From NCBI GenBank assembly GCA_021129445.1, contig JAJOLG010000065.1:1-8416 (forward strand): a DNA stretch of 8,416 nt. Reading direction: 5' to 3'. Shown here one piece after another: positions 225 through 8,416 of the stretch. Position numbers and translations under genes: made by a program. The notes beneath the pieces were generated by a model. That model searched no databases. It worked only from the letters and a program-made list of their open reading frames with translations, and was not told the DNA's origin. Numbering within the stretch: the first letter of the stretch is position 1; the number at the start of each line of letters is the position of its first letter. This stretch comes from Candidatus Altimarinota bacterium (GTDB taxonomy: Bacteria > Patescibacteriota > Gracilibacteria > GCA-2401425 > JAJOLG01).

Positions 225-971
225 CTATTTAAGTTTTCTAACTCATCAAGCATCTTTTGAAGAAGATTTTAATTCAGTAGATTTTTTATTTGCTAAAATC
301 GCAGCTTCAACATGTCATAAAATAAATGACAAAGATTTAATCGCATCATCATTTGCAGGAACTCAGTTTTGGTACAATTCAGAATTTACATTTGAATCCA
401 TAATTCATAAAACTGGAATTCATAATTTATTTGCTTCTGTTAAAGCAATTTCATCTCTTTTTCAATCAACAACGAAAATTGCATCTGGAACTTTATTCAT
501 TTTTTCAATTCATCAAAGAACTTTTGTCAATTTTTCTAAATCTTTTGCAAATTGAGATTGTTCTTTTTTTGTATATTTTGAAATTTCTCAAGTTTCAAAT
601 TGATCTTTTAATTTTCTCATTAAAGCAACTCTTTGTTTGATTGTTTGAAAATTTGTCAATAATCATCACATCCATTTTTGAGAAATAATTGGCATTCAAG
701 TTGTTTCAGCAATGTTTGACAAAAGTGTTTTAGTTTGAGGCTTTGTAGAAACAAAAAGAATTGTTTTTCAAGAAGAAGCTAGATCAGCAACTTGATTTAA
801 AACATTTACAAACATTTCAGCTGATTGTTCAAGGTCAAAAATATGAACTCAGTTTTTTACTCAGTATAAATACTGTCTCATTTTTGGGTTCCATTTTGAA
901 GTTTTGTGTCAAATATGACAGTAGTTTACAAACATTTCTCTTGGAGAAATAGCAGTGTTTTGTGTAGACAT
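225..971 (-). CDS. rpsB: 30S ribosomal protein S2
   Basis: Translated with TGA = Gly, this is a full-length 248-residue S2, a structural protein of the small ribosomal subunit. Family landmarks are seen in order: an N-terminal IGHKTSKWNPKM (residues 20-31), the GVHIFDLE segment (41-48), ILFVSTK (71-77), the highly conserved KWMGGLLTN (99-107), and VVDGKRDEIALTEANKLGIP (167-186), with the usual length. All 17 glycines are TGA codons and none is GGN, so the standard code would break the gene into pieces. The ATG start is the only plausible one. AAGGA lies about 18 bases upstream, too far for a normal ribosome-binding site. It is the only gene here that ends in TAG. An in-frame TAA follows ten codons later at 195-197. 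It appears to be monocistronic, between its own terminator and that of rpsG. Confidence 0.97.
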
Positions 972-1027
972 AAAAAATTTTAATTATTTTCCTTAATATT
1001 AATCTTACTTCATAATAATTTTCTTAG

Positions 1028-1050
1028 CTCAAAAAAATTTTGAGAGGGCG
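1028..1050 (-). promoter_or_regulatory. Candidate structured leader of rpsB
   Basis: CTCAAAA/TTTTGAG forms a 7-bp stem with a 3-base loop. On the mRNA sense (minus) strand it is preceded by CCGCCCT, the only G/C-rich patch in this intergenic stretch. It lies about 57-80 bases upstream of the rpsB start, where autoregulatory leaders of ribosomal protein operons often sit. No T-run follows on the minus strand, so it is not an obvious terminator. The regulatory role is inference. The rest of 972-1125 is A/T-rich with no convincing -35/-10 pair. Confidence 0.25.
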
Positions 1051-1125
1051 GAAAACTAGAAATAAAATATTTTTTTATAAAATAAATTTTTTTATTTGAA
1101 GAAAAAAAATTTTAAAAAAACTTTT

Positions 1126-1153
1126 TAATTTCAGAAAAATTTTTCTGAAATTA
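1126..1153 (-). terminator. Probable terminator of the rplA-rpsL-rpsG transcript
   Basis: This is a perfect 28-base palindrome with arms reading TAATTTCAGAAAAA. It begins about 20 bases past the rpsG stop. On the minus strand the T-run (T7) starts only after a short AAAAAG spacer, so the form is less classical than the other terminators in the window. On the plus strand it is followed by TTTTATTT. Confidence 0.6.
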
Positions 1154-1173
1154 TTTTATTTCACAAAAATAAT

Positions 1174-1617
1174 TTAGTATCTTGCGAAATGAGCAAATGC
1201 TTTATTTGCATGAGCCATTTTAAGAACTTCTTCTTTCTTTTTGAAAGCTCATCAAGTATCAGATAATGCATCATTTAATTCAATTGCCAATCTTTTATGC
1301 ATTGGCAATCATTTTTTTCATCTTGCTGAATTTAAAATCCATCAAATTGCCAAGAAAACTTGTCTTTTATCAGAAACTTCAACAGGAATTTGATAAACAG
1401 CTCATCAAACTCTTTTTGCTCTAACTTCAACATGAGGCATAACATTGTTTAAAGCTTTTTCAAAAGCTTCAACAGGATTTTTATGTCACATTGTTTTTAA
1501 TTCTTCAAAACATGAAGATAAAATTTTTCTTGCAACAGTTTTTTTTCAATCTTTCATTAAACAATTAATGAATTTTTCTTGTAATGGAGTTGATCCAGTT
1601 GGTATAAATTTAAACAT
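1174..1617 (-). CDS. rpsG: 30S ribosomal protein S7
   Basis: With TGA = Gly this gives a 147-residue S7, which nucleates assembly of the 30S head by binding 16S rRNA. The sequence shows NPVEAFEKALNNVMPHVEVR (49-68), RVGGAVYQIPVEV (70-82), the LAIGWILNSAR region, TGGAFKKKEEVLKMAHANKAFAHF (from about 121) and a family-typical C-terminal end. Nine glycines are TGA and one is GGA. Compared with the usual 156 residues, the shortfall is at the N-terminus: the basic MPRR-type arm is missing. The frame stays open for 18 codons upstream to a TAG at 1672-1674 but contains no ATG, GTG or TTG, so either the arm is absent or a rare start such as ATT is used. It is third in the rplA-rpsL-rpsG cluster, 69 bases after rpsL. 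No Shine-Dalgarno sequence is visible. Confidence 0.96.
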
Positions 1618-1637
1618 AGTATTTTTTTTAATTAATG

Positions 1638-1681
1638 ATTTTATAAAATAATTTTTATAAAATGATGTTCTCTAAAAGAGA
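1638..1681. repeat. Inverted repeats in the rpsL-rpsG spacer
   Basis: The 69-base spacer holds the palindrome ATTTTATAAAAT (1638-1649), a near copy TTTTTATAAAAT (1652-1663), and a small hairpin TCTCT-AAA-AGAGA (1669-1681). On the plus strand the hairpin is followed by T7, but there is no plus-strand gene for it to terminate. On the mRNA strand it lies just after the rpsL stop, where it could affect processing or coupling between rpsL and rpsG. That role is speculative. Confidence 0.35.
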
Positions 1682-1686
1682 TTTTT

Positions 1687-2106
1687 TTAAGATTTAGGTT
1701 TTTTAGTTCAATATTTTGATCTTCATCTTTTTCTTCATTCTACTCATTGAGTATCTAAATATCATCTTAAAATATGATATCTACATCAAGGAAGATCTTT
1801 TACTCTTCATCATCTAATTGCAACAACCGAATGTTCTTGCAAATTGTGTCACTCTCAAGGAATGTATGCAGTAACCTCTGTTCAGTTTGTTAATCTAACT
1901 CTGGCAATTTTTCTCAATGCCGAGTTTGGTTTTTTTGGTGTAGCAGTTGTAACTTTTACACAAACTCATTTTTTAAATGGTGCTCATTTTTTTAAATAAA
2001 CTCTTTGTCATTTAATTGAGTTGTAAGTATATTGTAAATCTTGTGATTTACTTTTTTTCTTAGGAGTTTTCCTAGGTTTTCTAATAAGTTGGTTTATAGT
2101 TGGCAT
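1687..2106 (-). CDS. rpsL: 30S ribosomal protein S12
   Basis: With TGA = Gly this is a complete 139-residue S12, the decoding-centre protein that monitors codon-anticodon pairing in the A site. The landmarks are an N-terminal MPTINQLIRKPRK, TPKKPNSALRK (56-66, the first decoding loop), RVRLTNG (69-75), IPGEGHNLQEHSVV (82-95), IRGGRVKDLPG (97-107) and a basic C-terminus SKYGTKKPKS. All 14 glycines are TGA. It is longer than the 124-residue E. coli form because of about 14 extra residues (around 20-45), a variation known in other bacteria. A Cys replaces the usual Val at residue 108 in the PG-V-RYH motif. The lysines classically linked to streptomycin resistance (PKKPNS and GRVKDLPG) are present. 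It starts only 9 bases after the rplA stop, which suggests cotranscription and coupled translation. Confidence 0.97.
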
Positions 2107-2115
2107 AATAATAAA

Positions 2116-2820
2116 TTATTTATTTACTGAATAAGCTTCATTAACATCAATTGACACTCAAGGTCACATTGTTGTTGCAAGTGAAACTGAATTTACATAA
2201 GTATTTTTAATAGAAGCTGGTTTTTTATCTAAAATTGAAGACATAATTGTTTTCAAATTTTCTAAAATTTTTGCTCATCAAAAAGATACTTTTCAAATTG
2301 AAACATGAATAATTCATGTTTTATCTGTTTTAAATTCAACTCTTCATTTTTTTAATTCTCAAATTGCTTTTTCAAAATCTTGAGTCACAGTTCATGCTTT
2401 TGGATTTGGCATTAAACCTTTTTGTCAAAGAGTTCTTGCAATTTTTCAAAGAGATTTCATCGCATCAGGAGTAGCAACAGCAATATCAAAATCAATTTTT
2501 CATTTTGAAACTTGCTCAACTAAATCATCAATTCAAACTAAATCAGCTCAAGCTTTTTTCGCAGCATCTTTATTTTCATCAGAAACAAATGCAGCAACTC
2601 TAACTGTTTTTCAAGTTCAGTGCGGTAAAACAACAACTCATCTAACAATTTGATCAGCATGTTTTGGATCAACACCAAGATTCATATGTAATTCAACAGA
2701 TGAATCGAACTTCGTAGTAGAAGTTTGTACAACTAAATCAGCAGCTTCATTTAAAGATAGATTTTCCTTACCAGAAATCTTTTCCAAAGCAGCTTTGTAC
2801 TTTTTTCAATATTTTTTCAT
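2116..2820 (-). CDS. rplA: 50S ribosomal protein L1
   Basis: With TGA = Gly this is a 234-residue L1, which binds 23S rRNA and forms the mobile L1 stalk at the E site. It begins MKKYGKKYKAALEKI, a normal start for the family. It then shows VELHMNLGVDPKHADQIVRG (from about 42), the VVLPHGTGKTVRVAAF segment, and the L1 signature LMPNPKAGTVT. Eighteen glycines are TGA and three are GGT. In most bacteria L1 follows L11 (rplK), and rpsL-rpsG follow rpoBC. Here rplA leads directly into rpsL with 9 bases between them, and no rplK precedes it. L1 is a known translational repressor in other bacteria, so it may regulate this unit, but I see no clear L1-binding leader. No Shine-Dalgarno sequence precedes the start. 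Confidence 0.96.
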
Positions 2821-2845
2821 AATATCGTTTTTCTTTTTTGGTCAA
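2819..2845 (-). promoter_or_regulatory. Weak candidate promoter for rplA
   Basis: On the minus strand TTGACC (2840-2845) is followed after 15 bases by TATTAT (2819-2824). The unit must start near here because a strong terminator closes the upstream pyk transcript. However, the spacer is short and the -10 overlaps the rplA ATG, which would place transcription start inside the coding region. Either the real -10 differs, or this is a chance match in A/T-rich sequence. Confidence 0.22.
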
Positions 2846-2859
2846 GCGTTTTTTCGACT

Positions 2860-2890
2860 AAAAAACTCCCAAATTTATAAATTTGGGAGT
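2860..2890 (-). terminator. Intrinsic terminator of pyk
   Basis: A perfect 26-base palindrome (arms ACTCCCAAATTTA, 2865-2890) is followed on the minus strand by T6 (2860-2865), 35 bases after the pyk stop. This is the clearest one-directional terminator in the window. It separates pyk from the ribosomal protein cluster. Confidence 0.88.
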
Positions 2891-2925
2891 AAAATAGTTG
2901 TTAAAAAAGAAAATGCAAGTTTTTT

Positions 2926-3933
2926 TTAATCAATTTCAAGAAAAAAATCCTCACTTTTCTCAGCAAATTCACAAATTTTTCTCATAACATTCACCGCTTT
3001 TTCAGGATGCCTTCAAGAAGCTGTTTCATCAGATAGCATTACCGTATTTGCTCACATCGAAACCGCACTTGAAACATCAAAAACTTCTGCTCTCGTTGGA
3101 GTTGTATTTTCGGTCATTGACATCAACATTTGTGTTGCAATAATTACAGGAGTCAATGTTCTATTACATTTTTTAACAATACTTTTTTGAACCAATGGCA
3201 ATTGATAAAAATGGACTTTAATTCACAAGTCACCTCTTGCAACCATTATTTCATCAGAGAATCCAATAATTTCATCAATATTTTGCAATCATTCAAGATT
3301 TTCAATCTTTGCAATAATTTTGATATTTTGTCAAACGATTTTTCTAACTTCCAAAATATCCTCTTTATTTCTCACAAAAGAAACTGCAACTGCATCAATT
3401 CATTCAGAAATTCACATTTTCAAAATTTCTTCATCTGACTTCGTCAAAATAGGTAAATCAATATGTTTTCAAGGTAAATTTATGTGACGACGAGAAGTTA
3501 TTGTTCAAGAATTTTTTGCAATTGCTTTTAAATTTTCTCATTTCTCAGAAACAGTTAAAACAATTTTTCAATCATCAATAATAATTTTGTCTCAAATTTC
3601 AACAGTTTCAGAAAATTTTTTAAATCAATGAAAAATTTTTTTATCATCAGAAAAAATTTTTTCTTTTTTATCAGAAAAAATCAAAAAATATTCTTCTCAT
3701 TTTAAAATTTTTATTTCTCAATCAGTATCCCCCGTGCGAATATCTGGTCATTTTGTATCCAAAACAACTTCATTTGGATTTCAAATTTCTTTTATTTTAC
3801 GAATTGCATTTTTATGAAAATCAACATCTCAATGAGATAAATTTAATCTAAATCTACTTGCTCATTTTTCTTGCAATTTTTTAATTTTTTCTAAACTCGC
3901 TGGTCAAACTGTGGCTAGAATTTTTGTGTTCAT
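2926..3933 (-). CDS. pyk: Pyruvate kinase, short form without the C-terminal domain
   Basis: Pyruvate kinase transfers phosphate from phosphoenolpyruvate to ADP in the last glycolytic step. With TGA = Gly the product is 335 residues and shows the catalytic core in order: ATVGPAS (7-13), RLNLSHGD (29-36), LDTKGPDIRTG (58-68), a B domain from about 69 to 155, [21 protein letters not shown] with the catalytic Lys209 and metal-binding Glu211, MVARGDLGI with Asp235, IATQMLMSM with Thr267, [13 protein letters not shown] (279-291) and [12 protein letters not shown] (299-310). The protein stops shortly after the barrel, so the roughly 120-140-residue C-terminal domain, which carries the allosteric site and tetramer contacts in most homologs, is absent. 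Downstream there is only a terminator, so this is not a recent frameshift. Twenty glycines are TGA and three are GGN. It is flanked by terminators and probably transcribed alone. Confidence 0.95.
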
Positions 3934-4014
3934 TTAATTTTTATTATTTTTAAAGACTAAATAAAAATAAAAAAATTTTTTATAAATATCAAAAGTTTTT
4001 TATAAAATCACAAT

Positions 4015-4043
4015 AAAAAACCATATTTTTCAATATGGTTTTT
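4015..4043. terminator. Bidirectional terminator downstream of the wecA-like gene
   Basis: CCATATT/AATATGG forms a 7-bp stem with the loop TTTC, extended by A6 on the left and T5 on the right. On the minus strand it ends in T6 about 108 bases after the stop of the transferase gene, before pyk. The plus-strand form also has a T-run but no gene to serve. Confidence 0.75.
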
Positions 4044-4065
4044 AAATTTTTCTCAAATCCAAAAT

Positions 4066-4142
4066 CTGTTTTTAGACAGGATTAAATTTAACACCTAAAT
4101 TTATCTATTACTAAATAATATATTTTTAAATTTAAAAATATA
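4066..4142. repeat. Inverted repeats in the 3' region of the transferase gene
   Basis: Two inverted repeats lie between the transferase stop and its terminator. One is a hairpin AATCTGT...ACAGGATT with one bulged base (about 4065-4085). The other is a perfect 24-base all-A/T palindrome (4119-4142) centred on AAATTT. Such palindromes arise easily in A/T-rich DNA, so function is uncertain. Nothing else is recognisable in 3934-4150. Confidence 0.35.
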
Positions 4143-4150
4143 AATTTTTT

Positions 4151-5230
4151 TTATTTTCTCCTTAAAAAAATTTCCAAAAATATCATAAAAACACACAAAA
4201 TAATCAATAAAATAAATTTTCACTCTGTTTCTAAAAAAATTGTTGGAATTCAAAATGAAGCAGAAAGTAAAATGTAAATTAAAACTGAATTTTTACGAGA
4301 AAATCATTTATCAAGCAAAATATGATGAAAATGCTCCATATCTCATTTCATCGGATTTTGTCAATTTTTTATGCGACGAAAAATCGTATAAAATGCATCA
4401 AAAATTGGAATTCACATCACAATCATCGCCGTTGCCATTTTTCATCAAGCAAAAACTGCAAAAACCGCAATTGCAAATCATAAAAACATCGAACCACTAT
4501 CCCCTATCAAAACCGATGGCTTTTCAAGATCAAAAAAGAAAAAAATCGTCGTAATCACAGCAAAAACTAAAAACATTTTTGCAATATCTGGCTGTCAAAC
4601 AAACGGAGAAATCGCCAAAAAAAACAAAAACCATCAAGATAAAGCGGCCAATCACGAAGTATTTCACGAAACTCAATCTGCCCAATTCATCGAATTTATC
4701 ATTCAAATTATCCAAAAAAATACCAGAAAATCCGCAATCGGATAGAAATAATGCCCAAAAATTTCAATTCATCAAATATTTAAGTTTAAAACTCATCAAA
4801 TCGGACTCAAAACCTCAGAAATTCAAATACCAGAAGCAATAATTATTCAGGCCGATAAAGCCTGAATTCAAAGTCTGAAAATCGGTGAAAGTCAATACCT
4901 ATCATCAAAAAATGATGTTGCAACTAAAATAACCGATGCAAAAAAAAATCCTAAAATCTGTTTTGAAACTGGAAAAATTGCAAAAATAATTATAAAAAAA
5001 ATTATTGGAATAATTATTCAAGCCGGATAAGGAACAGGGTTTCGCGAATATCAAAATTTTTTTGGATTATCAAGAAATCAAATTTTTGGAAAAATTTTTT
5101 TCACCAAAAAAATCCCGAACAATGTCAAAAAAATTGTTCAAAGTATTAAAAAAAAATTTTCATAAAGATTGAAAAAAACTCTTGATGAAAGAAAAAAATT
5201 TTGAAGCGATGATAAAAAATTTTCTGACAT
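4151..5230 (-). CDS. WecA/TagO/MraY-family undecaprenyl-phosphate sugar-1-phosphate transferase
   Basis: With TGA = Gly this is a 359-residue polytopic membrane protein. The family moves a sugar-1-phosphate (in WecA and TagO, GlcNAc-1-P from UDP-GlcNAc) onto undecaprenyl phosphate at the cytoplasmic face, starting a lipid-linked glycan. Motifs in order: FFDDRYGLSP with the Asp109-Asp110 pair, NWADGVSGNTSGLAAL (182-197, the N-x-x-DG loop), IGDSGSMFLGF (242-252), and HFHH at 300-303, which matches the HIHH-type motif of the WecA/TagO branch and argues against MraY. About ten hydrophobic segments surround them. The final segment ends in the basic sequence LRRK. The exact sugar cannot be told. 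An in-frame TAA directly abuts the ATG, which fixes the start. Twenty-seven glycines are TGA and six are GGN. It uses more TCG, CCG, ACG and GCG codons than its neighbours. It lies 127 bases after the Nudix gene. The standard code breaks it up completely, so it would normally be missed. Confidence 0.93.
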
Positions 5231-5357
5231 TTATTTTTTTAAATTTTCAATATCATTAATAATATTTTTTATTTTTTTTACAATTTTTTTCAATCTATTA
5301 AAAAAACTTTTTAAAATAATAACCTCTATAAAAACTATTTTAAAAATATCAAATTTT

Positions 5358-5804
5358 TTAATAAGAATAAAAATTATCTTTAATTTTTTCCAATCACTCC
5401 AATAATTTTTCCTTCAAAAAAGCTGGTTTTAAACCTCAAATTTCAGAAATTGTAAACCATTTTATATCATCTAATTCAATTTCTGCAAAATCTCAGACTC
5501 ATCAAATAAAATCTTTTCAATTTTTTACCTCGAAAAAAAATTCAATATTATTTTTCTCTCAAGTTTCTCAAAATCTATTTTTTTCGTAAGAAAATTCGTG
5601 AACAAAAAGCATTTTTCAAATTTCTGCCTCAACTCATAATTCTTCAAAAAGTTCTCTTTTTATTGCAGTTTTTGACCTTTCTCACGGGTCAACTTTTCAT
5701 CACGGAAGTGCATAAAAATCATTTCATTTATGTTTTACAAGCAAAATTTTATCTCAATCCAAAATTATCGCACGAACTCTAAAAATTGTTTCATTTCAAT
5801 TCAT
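5358..5804 (-). CDS. Nudix hydrolase
   Basis: With TGA = Gly the product is 148 residues, a typical size for a stand-alone Nudix domain. The full Nudix box is present from Gly36 to Val58 (G-x5-E-x7-REU-x-EE-x-GU), with Glu42, Arg50, Glu51, Glu54 and Glu55 as the Mg-binding and catalytic set. The N-terminal part FRVRAIILDGDKILLVKHK is the usual first strand pair, and the C-terminal KWFTISEI strand-helix also fits. Such enzymes hydrolyse nucleoside diphosphates linked to another moiety, but the substrate (oxidised dNTP, ADP-ribose, sugar nucleotide) cannot be read from the sequence. Sixteen glycines are TGA and one is GGT. It begins 21 bases after the glutamate dehydrogenase stop, so the two are probably cotranscribed. 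No Shine-Dalgarno sequence is visible. Confidence 0.94.
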
Positions 5805-5825
5805 TTTTTTGTTAATTTTATTTTT

Positions 5826-7088
5826 TTAAACTTCACCTCTGTCCTTCATCGCATCAAGTATTCTTTTCATAGAAACTATATAAGCTGCTGATCTCAAATG
5901 TGTTTTGTATTCTTTTGCAGTTTCAAAAACATTTTTAGCTGCATTTGTAATTTTTTTGTATAATTTATCAGAAACTTCTTTTTCTTCCCAATAAAAATTC
6001 ATATTATTTTGCACTTGTTCAAAATAAGAAACCATTACTCATCAAGAATTTGCTAAAATATCTGGAATAATTATTATTCATTTTTTAAATAAAATTTCAT
6101 CTCACTCTGGTGTTATTGGTCAATTTGCAAGTTCTAAAATATATTTTGCTTGAATTTTATCCGCATTTTCATCTGTAATCTGATTTTCTAGCGCTGCTGG
6201 AATAAGAATATCGCACTCTTTTTCTAAAATTTCTTTTGCTCATAATTTTTCTGCATCTAAATATTCTAAAACAGATTTTTTTTGAGATTTTATTTTTTCA
6301 ATTTCTGAAATTTTTATTCAATTTTCATTAAAAATTCATCATTTTGAATCAGAAATTCATAAAATTTTTGCTCATTTTTCTTCTAAAATTTTTCAAGCTA
6401 TCAATCAAGCATTTCATGCTCATTGAATAATTATTTTTTTTCATTCAATTTTATCATTTGATAATTCTAGAATTTTTTGTAAAACATAAACTCATCATTG
6501 AGCAGTTGCTGTTCATCTTCATTTAGATCATCAGCAAGTAAGAGGTTTTCAAGTGAAAGATCAAGGAGAATATTTTCATACTAATTTTGAATATTCATCC
6601 ATCATCCAAGCCATAATTTGAGGATTTGTGTTTACATCAGGAGCTGGCACATCTTGTTCTGGTCAAATATATTTGTATAATTCTCTAACATATCATCTTG
6701 ACAACCTTTCAATTTCTCATTGAGATAATTCTTTTGGATTTACAATAATTCATCATTTTCATCATCAAAGAGGAATATCAATAACAGCGCATTTAAAACT
6801 CATCCACATACTCAAAGCTTTTACTTCTGATTGACTTACATCTTGATGAAAACGAATTCATCATTTAAAAGGTCATCTTGCATTGTTATGCTGAGATCTG
6901 TACCCTGTGAAAAATCTAATTTTTCAATTATCCATTTTTACTGGTATATTAATCTCGATAATTCTTCTTGGATGAGAAATCATCTCGTATTTGTTATCAT
7001 CTAATTTACATTCATCATATAAATTACAAGCTTCTCTAATTTGTCTTCTTGCATTTAAAAATGCATCGTTAATATTTTTTTCTAACAT
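5826..7088 (-). CDS. gdhA: Glutamate dehydrogenase (Glu/Leu/Phe/Val dehydrogenase family)
   Basis: The enzyme interconverts glutamate with 2-oxoglutarate and ammonia using NAD(P). With TGA = Gly the product is 420 residues, the normal length for the hexameric short family. Active-site lysines are Lys75 in GPFKGGIRFH, Lys99 in [13 protein letters not shown] and Lys111 in GGGKGG, with Asp151 in PAPDVNT. Their spacing (24, 12, 40) equals that of the classic clostridial enzyme. The nucleotide-binding domain begins near FTGKPL (178-183), with QGAGNAG (222-228) as its Rossmann glycine motif. The C-terminal part LANGPITPEGD and PDILANSGGV is typical. Related amino-acid dehydrogenases share the fold, but the lysine-region motifs favour glutamate. 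Thirty-seven glycines are TGA, one GGG and one GGT. It heads the gdhA-nudix unit and possibly the transferase gene, behind the candidate promoter at 7170-7197. Confidence 0.95.
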
Positions 7089-7122
7089 AATTTTTTATTT
7101 TTTATATTTTTATAAATGCTGG

Positions 7123-7136
7123 GTATTTAAAAATAC
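7123..7136. repeat. Short hairpin in the gdhA leader
   Basis: GTATTT-AA-AAATAC forms a 6-bp inverted repeat about 35-48 bases upstream of the gdhA ATG. If transcription begins at the promoter proposed at 7170-7197, it would lie in the untranslated leader. No function can be assigned. Confidence 0.3.
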
Positions 7137-7169
7137 TAGTCATAATTTATGGATATTTTTTATATTAAA

Positions 7170-7197
7170 ATTATATAACCCTAGGGTTTAGAGTAAA
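7170..7197 (-). promoter_or_regulatory. Candidate gdhA promoter with a palindromic operator
   Basis: On the minus strand there is a perfect -10 TATAAT (7170-7175) and a -35-like TTTACT (7192-7197), 16 bases apart. Transcription would begin near 7163, leaving a leader of about 75 bases. The spacer contains the perfect 12-base palindrome AACCCTAGGGTT (7177-7188), a G/C-rich island in A/T-rich DNA and well placed for a dimeric repressor. The -10 match is strong. The -35 matches four of six consensus bases, and the operator role is inferred from position alone. Confidence 0.45.
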
Positions 7198-7222
7198 ATA
7201 GATTTTTTCCTACTCTAAATCC
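7184..7222. repeat. Long inverted repeat between maf and gdhA
   Basis: GGGTTTAGAGTA (7184-7195) pairs with TACTCTAAATCC (7211-7222), giving a 12-bp stem with one G-T wobble and a 15-base loop. It starts 5 bases beyond the maf stop. The T6 run (7223-7228) is on the plus-strand side, so as a terminator it would face the wrong way for maf. On the mRNA strand it may stabilise the maf 3' end. Its left arm shares GGGTT with the palindrome at 7177-7188, so the two structures exclude each other. Confidence 0.5.
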
Positions 7223-7226
7223 TTTT

Positions 7227-7799
7227 TTAAAACCCTTCCAACATATTTTTCAAAATATTTACCGGAAGTCAAACAATATTTAAAAAACACCCATCAATTT
7301 TTTTTACAAATTGCAAAGAAAATCACTCAATAGAAAAACCTCAACTTCTCCCCTGCCATTCATTTTTTTCAAGCCATTTTTCAACATCATTTTCCGTAAT
7401 TTTTCACCAAAAAATTTTTGTTTCAACAATTTTTGAAATTTTTTTCACTTCTCAATTTTCCAAAATTTTTACAAGAGAAATTCAAGAAAATACAGATAAA
7501 ACCTCATTGGAATAAGACAAAAGCATTTTTTTCGCATCATCTAAATCTTTCGGTTTAAAATAATTTCCATTTTTCGAATGAACTGGAAAAGTATCGCATC
7601 AAATAACAATTTTTCAAATATTATTTTTTGCAACATAAAACGCTTTTCACTCAGAAAAATCCAAAATATTCTCTTCCAAATTTTTATTTTCGTCCCAAAT
7701 TTCATCAAAATTTGATGGAATTACTTCAAAATTTTCTGTGATATTTTTTAGCAAAATTTTTCTTCTTGGGCTCTGGGAAGCTAAAATTATTTTTTCCAT
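7227..7799 (-). CDS. maf: Maf-family nucleotide pyrophosphatase
   Basis: Maf proteins hydrolyse nucleoside triphosphates, including modified ones, to the monophosphate and pyrophosphate and help to clean the nucleotide pool. With TGA = Gly the product is 190 residues, the usual length. The opening MEKIILASQSPRRKILL carries the S-x-S-P-R-R phosphate-binding motif (8-13). IGCDTFPV (66-73) holds the catalytic Asp69, where Cys replaces the commoner Ala. KPKD (82-85), VFSGISLV (103-110), WQGRSGGFSIEG (148-159) and GCFLNIVGLP (170-179) follow in family order. The GRSGGFSIEG segment is a variant of the usual KAGAYGIQG, so the dTTP/UTP- versus m7GTP-type specificity is uncertain. Nine glycines are TGA and five are GGN, the highest GGN share here. 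It starts 17 bases after the tilS stop with no Shine-Dalgarno sequence, so a tilS-maf unit is likely. Confidence 0.93.
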
Positions 7800-7816
7800 A
7801 GCTTATTTTTTATTTT

Positions 7817-8416
7817 TTAAAACTTTACAACTCACTTCTCCAAAAAAAATCAATGCTTTTCCTTTTTCCCTTCTCACTTTTCAATCATTTGAATCACCTC
7901 AAAAATATTCTCCGAAGTAGTTCATTTTTTTAAATTTTTTTTATTCTCAAAAATTTTTTTAATCAAAATTTTTTTCAGAGAAATATCCAATTCATTAAAA
8001 AATTTTTTAGAAAATTTTTTTTGCTCAAAAAATTTTTGAAAAACCTGATTTTTATCAGAAAAATTTTCTTCAAAATCTAAAAATTTTTTTAACTTTTCAA
8101 ATAAATTTTTTTCCAAATAAAAAAAATTTTCCTGAGAAATTTTTGCCATTTTTATCAAATTTTCTCAAAAATTTTTGTTTATTTTTTCCAATTCTGGAAA
8201 AATTTTATTGCGAATTTTATTTCTTGTAAAAAAATTTTCTGAATTTGTAGAGTCTTCTCGCCGTTTTAAATTATTTTTTTTCGCAAAATCCAAAATTTCC
8301 TGTTTTGAAAAATCCAAAATTGGTCGCCAAATTTTCATTCAAAAATTTTCTGAAAACTCCTTCATCGGCGAAAAATTCGCAGTTCACCTCAACATTTGCA
8401 AAAACAAAGTTTCAAC
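7817..8416 (-). CDS. tilS: tRNA(Ile)-lysidine synthase, 5' end beyond the window
   Basis: TilS converts C34 of the tRNA-Ile CAU anticodon to lysidine, so that the tRNA reads AUA instead of AUG. Only the last 199 residues are present. The N-terminal PP-loop ATPase (SGGxDS) would lie outside. The visible part begins VETLFLQMLRGT, the end of the ATPase domain (family E-T-x-L-x-x-L-x-RG). It continues with IWRPILDFSKQEILDFAKKN (29-48), EDSTNSENFFTRNKIRNKIF (54-73) and the PELEKINKNF segment, which together are diagnostic. A Lys/Phe/Asn-rich helical region and a C-terminal domain follow. Seven glycines are TGA, including one at 7919-7921 where a standard-code call would stop about 34 codons early. 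One CGG and two CGA codons occur. It ends 17 bases before maf. Confidence 0.92.

What the first reader, a model, noticed from the sequence alone, without database searches (positions are those of the whole stretch)
225..8416. UGA is decoded as glycine throughout (genetic code 25)
Ten conserved genes become full-length only when in-frame TGA is read as Gly, and the TGA codons sit at invariant glycines: the Nudix box, GGGKGG and GAGNAG in GDH, GDSGS in the WecA-like enzyme, KWMGGL in S2 and GEGHN in S12. My hand count is about 174 TGA versus about 22 GGN for glycine. UGG remains Trp, and no gene uses TGA as a stop. Code 25 is established for Absconditabacteria and Gracilibacteria. A standard-code annotation of this window would yield only fragments, with 4151-5230 seeming non-coding.
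Basis: partly seen in the sequence, partly recalled or inferred. Interest (0 to 1): 0.8.

Follow-up and report, generated by a model that had tools for sequence, protein, structure and literature searches.

The report
UGA-as-glycine bacterium outside known lineages
This stretch comes from a tiny uncultured bacterium that reads the usual stop signal UGA as the amino acid glycine, and its genes place it among relatives that still use UGA as a stop, so this rare rewriting of the genetic code probably evolved a second time.

Summary
Ten conserved genes on the minus strand are full length only when TGA is read as a residue. The codon counts are exactly 174 TGA against 22 GGN, with stops of 9 TAA and 1 TAG. 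The residue is Gly: in alignments to standard-code relatives, 259 of 293 conserved columns at TGA are Gly, while TGG is Trp in 19 of 21. One cited motif is wrong: the glycines of GDSGS are GGG/GGT, not TGA.

The window is contig C37 of a 673-kb MAG. RpoB, RpoC, S7 and S12 trees put it with G001, a standard-code, RF2-bearing genome of the same order (100/99), inside a standard-code clade. The two code-25 families lie on the other side of a 100/99 branch. A single code-25 clade is rejected (p-AU 0.011). An independent UGA-to-Gly reassignment is therefore most likely. A 2022 Methods note on one MAG of GTDB order GCA-2401425 probably records the same lineage without drawing this conclusion.

tRNA-Gly(UCA) and RF2 could not be settled: RF1 and several indispensable tRNAs are also missing from the assembly.

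The parts
225..971 (-). rpsB, 30S ribosomal protein S2, 248 aa under table 25; 17 TGA, 0 GGN; stop TAG
   Evidence: PF00318 3.6e-72, TIGR01011 over cut-off, codons
1174..1617 (-). rpsG, ribosomal protein S7, 147 aa; 9 TGA, 1 GGN; stop TAA
   Evidence: PF00177 1.3e-47, TIGR01029 over cut-off; used in the trees
1687..2106 (-). rpsL, ribosomal protein S12, 139 aa; 14 TGA, 0 GGN; stop TAA
   Evidence: PF00164 7.4e-37, TIGR00981 over cut-off; used in the trees
2116..2820 (-). rplA, ribosomal protein L1, 234 aa; 18 TGA, 3 GGN; stop TAA
   Evidence: PF00687 1.3e-63, TIGR01169 over cut-off
2926..3933 (-). pyk, pyruvate kinase barrel domain, 335 aa without the C-terminal domain; 20 TGA, 3 GGN; stop TAA
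   Evidence: PF00224 4.7e-95; TIGR01064 matches only positions 2-337 of 476
4151..5230 (-). WecA/MraY-type polyprenyl-phosphate sugar phosphotransferase, 359 aa; 27 TGA, 6 GGN; stop TAA; the GDSGS glycines are GGG/GGT
   Evidence: PF00953 9.1e-21; best NCBIfam match TIGR02380 below cut-off; motif codons
5358..5804 (-). Nudix hydrolase, 148 aa; 16 TGA, 1 GGN; all four glycines of the Nudix box stretch are TGA; stop TAA
   Evidence: PF00293 8.5e-19; motif codons
5826..7088 (-). gdhA, glutamate dehydrogenase, 420 aa; 37 TGA, 2 GGN; stop TAA
   Evidence: PF00208 4.8e-78 and PF02812 4.4e-61; best with TGA = Gly among ten residues tried
7227..7799 (-). maf, Maf-family nucleotide pyrophosphatase, 190 aa; 9 TGA, 5 GGN; stop TAA
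   Evidence: PF02545 8e-41, TIGR00172 over cut-off
7817..8416 (-). tilS, tRNA lysidine(34) synthetase, 3' part (199 aa), cut by the contig end; 7 TGA, 1 GGN; stop TAA
   Evidence: PF01171 2.8e-16, TIGR02432 below cut-off because partial

Best explanation
The window is a contig of a reduced, AT-rich candidate-phyla-radiation bacterium in which UGA is a sense codon for glycine genome-wide, UGG stays Trp, CGA stays Arg, and only UAA and UAG end genes. The genome lies in an order-level lineage beside a standard-code relative with RF2, inside the standard-code (Peregrinibacteria-like) part of its class. UGA to Gly therefore most likely arose here independently of the Absconditabacteria/Gracilibacteria event. 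Likely route, inferred: AT mutation pressure made UGA rare as a stop, RF2 was lost, a duplicated tRNA-Gly gained a UCA anticodon, and AT pressure then converted GGA and other GGN codons to UGA until it supplied 83-97% of glycine codons. Shown: the meaning of the codon, its genome-wide use and the placement. Inferred: the tRNA, the loss of RF2 and the order of steps.
For: TGA aligns with Gly in 259 of 293 conserved columns and gives the best GDH profile score as Gly. Use is genome-wide: 4819 TGA to 1012 GGN, and 77 of 79 Gly codons in the rpoB fragment. Placement: G000+G001 100/99, a 10-row standard-code clade 100/99, and code-25 families on the other side of a 100/99 branch in the RpoB+RpoC+S7+S12 tree. 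The single-clade AU p is 0.011, and 0.0325 and 0.0131 on smaller data sets. The window's own S7+S12 give G000+G001 at 94/97. G001, G015, G024 and G034 have RF2, and their rpoB fragments have no in-frame TGA. G000's amino-acid make-up resembles the code-25 rows, so compositional pull would act against this placement. UGA share rises as GC falls among the code-25 genomes (Spearman -0.75, n=12).
Against: The AU p-values are 0.011-0.043, not overwhelming, and G000 and G001 both have long end branches. Holding code-25 rows + G000 + G001 together is only narrowly rejected (p 0.043), which would leave a single origin with reversion in G001. Only one genome of this lineage is held. The decoding tRNA and RF1/RF2 were not found, so the machinery is inferred.
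Confidence: 0.82

Rival explanations
1. The genome is an early branch of the known code-25 group (Absconditabacteria + Gracilibacteria) and shares their single reassignment; the trees misplace it because its branch is long.
For: Same class as the code-25 families; long end branch (0.55); AU rejection is moderate.
Against: Four data sets agree on a standard-code neighbourhood, although its composition would pull it towards the code-25 rows. The forced clade costs 36-55 log-likelihood units. It lacks the CGA = Trp change reported for Absconditabacteria: CGA aligns with Arg in 4 of 4 columns (PMC8629427).
Confidence: 0.12
2. UGA to Gly arose once before the code-25 families and this order split, and G001 reverted to the standard code.
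For: Holding code-25 rows + G000 + G001 together is rejected only at p 0.043.
Against: Reversion would need hundreds of in-frame UGA codons removed and RF2 regained. G001 has a normal RF2 and no TGA in 734 rpoB codons. The best tree does not join these groups.
Confidence: 0.04
3. UGA means another residue (Trp as in code 4, or Ser/Ala/Cys), or the TGA codons reflect sequencing errors or pseudogenes.
For: None found.
Against: Gly in 259 of 293 conserved columns, Gly the best of ten residues tried, full-length conserved ribosomal proteins with TGA at invariant glycines, and the same pattern over about 310 kb read.
Confidence: 0.01

Closest known systems
NCBI genetic code 25 (Absconditabacteria/SR1 and Gracilibacteria/BD1-5; GTDB JAEDAM01)
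   Same: UGA = Gly, UGG = Trp, stops UAA and UAG only; AT-rich candidate-phyla-radiation bacteria.
   Different: Tree position is among standard-code Peregrinibacteria-like genomes; 97% of Gly codons in the rpoB fragment are UGA against 6-85% in twelve code-25 genomes; CGA stays Arg, whereas Absconditabacteria are reported to read CGA and CGG as Trp (PMC8629427).
MAG 4559-240_metabat1_scaf2bin.085 of GTDB order GCA-2401425 (PMC9793634, Methods)
   Same: A vent-deposit MAG in an order of two genomes, the other deposited with code 11 genes; its genes averaged 85 aa under code 11 and 277 aa under code 25. Our order also holds two genomes, one code 25 and one standard.
   Different: The paper's main text gives ORF lengths only, with no test of the residue and no remark on an independent origin. 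Identity with G000 is likely but could not be checked.
UGA = Trp codes (Mycoplasmatales and insect endosymbionts, code 4)
   Same: UGA stop captured as a sense codon in AT-rich reduced genomes.
   Different: The residue here is Gly, not Trp.

Membership tests
Genetic code 25 (UGA = Gly) | In-frame UGA at positions that are Gly in relatives | tested here: met
   259 of 293 conserved columns are Gly; best GDH score with Gly
Genetic code 25 (UGA = Gly) | UGG remains Trp | tested here: met
   19 of 21 conserved columns
Genetic code 25 (UGA = Gly) | Only UAA and UAG end genes | tested here: met
   9 TAA, 1 TAG, 0 TGA among ten genes
Genetic code 25 (UGA = Gly) | tRNA-Gly with UCA anticodon (G1:C72, C2:G71, G3:C70, U73) | tested here: inconclusive
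   None among 26 tRNAs, but at least six indispensable isoacceptors are also missing. The same kind of pattern search finds it in code-25 family f12, not in f15.
Genetic code 25 (UGA = Gly) | RF2 (prfB) absent, RF1 present | tested here: inconclusive
   No RF-1 or PCRF domain at all; RF1 must exist, so its gene lies outside the readable assembly. Read-through search works for other genes.
Absconditabacteria/Gracilibacteria lineage | Groups with code-25 genomes in protein trees | tested here: not met
   Groups with standard-code G001; AU p 0.011
Absconditabacteria | CGA and CGG read as Trp (PMC8629427) | tested here: not met
   CGA at Arg in 4 of 4 columns; one CGG column only, aligned to Phe, so CGG is untested

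The most novel reading that the evidence does not exclude
UGA to Gly evolved independently here and is read by a different decoder from the tRNA-Gly(UCA) of the known groups, for example a tRNA with a modified wobble base. The genome has two unusual CCA-anticodon tRNAs and no detected UCA tRNA. Against this, neither CCA tRNA has the bacterial glycine identity bases.
Probability: 0.05. Interest if true: 0.88.

Novelty: new member of a known kind. Interest (0 to 1): 0.62.

Why it matters
UGA to Gly is described as restricted to one lineage with one origin (PMC13293708). A second origin nearby, with a standard-code genome in the same order, would make it possible to ask why this part of the tree repeatedly chooses glycine, and to compare the tRNA and release-factor changes of two parallel events. 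It also affects practice: gene callers that assign code 25 by taxonomy would break every gene of this genome.

Tried and rejected
1) UGA = Trp, Ala, Ser, Cys, Arg, Glu, Asn, Lys or Gln: all score below Gly in GDH.
2) The two CCA-anticodon tRNAs (L011, L023) as UGA readers for Gly: L011 has C1:G72 and A73, L023 has G1:U72 and G73. The organism's tRNA-Gly(UCC) has the usual G1:C72, C2:G71, G3:C70, U73, so neither fits glycine identity as listed in PMC8629427.
3) A UCA-anticodon pattern in the own genome: one chance hit in C19, which ARAGORN and the Rfam tRNA model do not support.
5) Counting stop codons in sister genomes from mechanical ORFs is blurred by antisense ORFs and was not used; RF2 presence and absence of in-frame TGA were used instead.
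6) An S7+S12 tree with distant outgroups does not resolve the backbone; only the G000+G001 pair is taken from it.

Full report
OBSERVATION. Table 25 gives ten long minus-strand ORFs. Pfam and NCBIfam name them rpsB, rpsG, rpsL, rplA, pyk, a WecA/MraY-type transferase, a Nudix hydrolase, gdhA, maf and the end of tilS. Table 11 gives only fragments. The counts are 174 TGA, 22 GGN and 15 TGG, with 9 TAA and 1 TAG stops. No tRNA or Rfam family lies in the window. The motif claims hold, except that the GDSGS glycines are GGG and GGT.

RESIDUE. ORFs from the window and 34 other stretches of the same MAG, with TGA masked as X, were aligned to proteins from standard-code loci. TGA columns are mostly Gly (301 of 416), and 259 of 293 conserved ones. 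TGG is Trp in 19 of 21, AGA is Arg in 137 of 160 and CGA is Arg in 4 of 4. GDH with ten residues tried at TGA scores best with Gly. The pattern is genome-wide: 4819 TGA to 1012 GGN over about 310 kb. It is strongest in rpoB, where 77 of 79 glycines are TGA.

WHOSE GENOME. The window is the whole of contig C37 in a MAG of 672,893 bases in 77 contigs, 94.8% complete. Named S7 relatives are Peribacteria and Peregrinibacteria at about 60% identity. Among 60 genomes of the class, rpoB carries in-frame TGA only in families f12 and f15 and in G000. The only other genome of G000's order, G001, has no TGA in rpoB and has both RF1 and RF2.

TREES. RpoB alone: G000 lies in a starred six-row standard-code set, and the code-25 rows lie on the other side of a 97/92 branch. 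RpoB+S7+S12: G000+G001 96/97. S7+S12 alone, both genes in the window: G000+G001 94/97. RpoB+RpoC+S7+S12, 2360 columns and 33 genomes: G000+G001 100/99, a ten-row standard-code clade 100/99, and code-25 rows cut off by a 100/99 branch. AU tests against one code-25 clade that includes G000 give p 0.0325, 0.0131 and 0.0111. Adding G001 to that clade gives p 0.043. At least two changes of code are needed on the best tree. Amino-acid composition of G000 resembles the code-25 rows, so bias would favour the rejected grouping.

MACHINERY. 26 tRNAs were found by covariance model and confirmed by ARAGORN on the contigs read. None has UCA. Met, Glu, Arg-UCU, Leu-UAA, Ser-GCU and Thr-UGU are also missing, and eleven contigs under 3 kb read as N. 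No RF-1-domain protein was found, although RF1 is indispensable and the read-through search works (GDH was found with 20 internal TGA). These absences are therefore not evidence. As a positive control, family f12 carries a tRNA(UCA) with G1:C72, C2:G71, G3:C70 and U73. Code-25 genomes G033, G014, G031, G011 and G023 show RF1 and no RF2 at the loci examined, three of them scored against NCBIfam. Standard-code neighbours G001, G015, G024 and G034 have RF2.

MECHANISM. The likely route is codon capture under AT pressure: UGA becomes rare as a stop, RF2 is lost, a tRNA-Gly acquires UCA, and UGA then spreads at glycine sites. Supporting this, the UGA share of Gly codons rises as locus GC falls among twelve code-25 genomes (Spearman -0.75), and G000 fits at the extreme. 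The steps themselves are inference.

KNOWN AND NEW. Code 25 is established. A 2026 review calls it restricted to the JAEDAM01 lineage with one origin (PMC13293708). A 2021 screen lists only Absconditabacteria and Gracilibacteria (PMC8629427), and a 2026 tRNA survey again only JAEDAM01 (PMC13092985). The one hint elsewhere is a Methods note that a MAG of GTDB order GCA-2401425 needed code 25 while the only other genome of that order was annotated with code 11 (PMC9793634). This matches G000 and G001 in outline, but identity could not be checked. The code is therefore known, the lineage has probably been seen once in passing, and the independent origin appears unremarked in the papers held.

Noticed in passing
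L011 (G000:C8:1944-2019) and L023 (G000:C4:12830-12904): Two CCA-anticodon tRNAs. L023 has G1:U72 and G73 (Trp-like ends) with a Glu-like D-arm. L011 has C1:G72, A73 and G37 and fits neither Trp nor Gly identity. An extra UGG reader could guard against misreading by a UCA tRNA.
   Followed up: partly
G000 contigs C60, C62, C64, C66 (L249, L314, L316, L318): Four small contigs with GC 0.30-0.34 (three measured) use GGN and almost no TGA, unlike the rest; probably foreign contigs binned into the MAG.
   Followed up: partly
G000 assembly: No tRNA for Met, Glu, Arg-UCU, Leu-UAA, Ser-GCU or Thr-UGU and no RF1 despite 94.8% estimated completeness.
   Followed up: partly
window 2926-3933: Pyruvate kinase ends after the barrel domain (335 aa; profile matched to 337 of 476), so the C-terminal regulatory domain is missing.
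   Followed up: no
families f12 and f15: The UCA-tRNA pattern is found in nearly all code-25 f12 genomes but in none of the f15 genomes examined, so the f15 tRNA-Gly(UCA) must differ in its anticodon or T loop.
   Followed up: no
rpoB of code-25 genomes: UGA share of glycine codons ranges from 6% to 85% in the known code-25 families and tracks GC content.
   Followed up: yes
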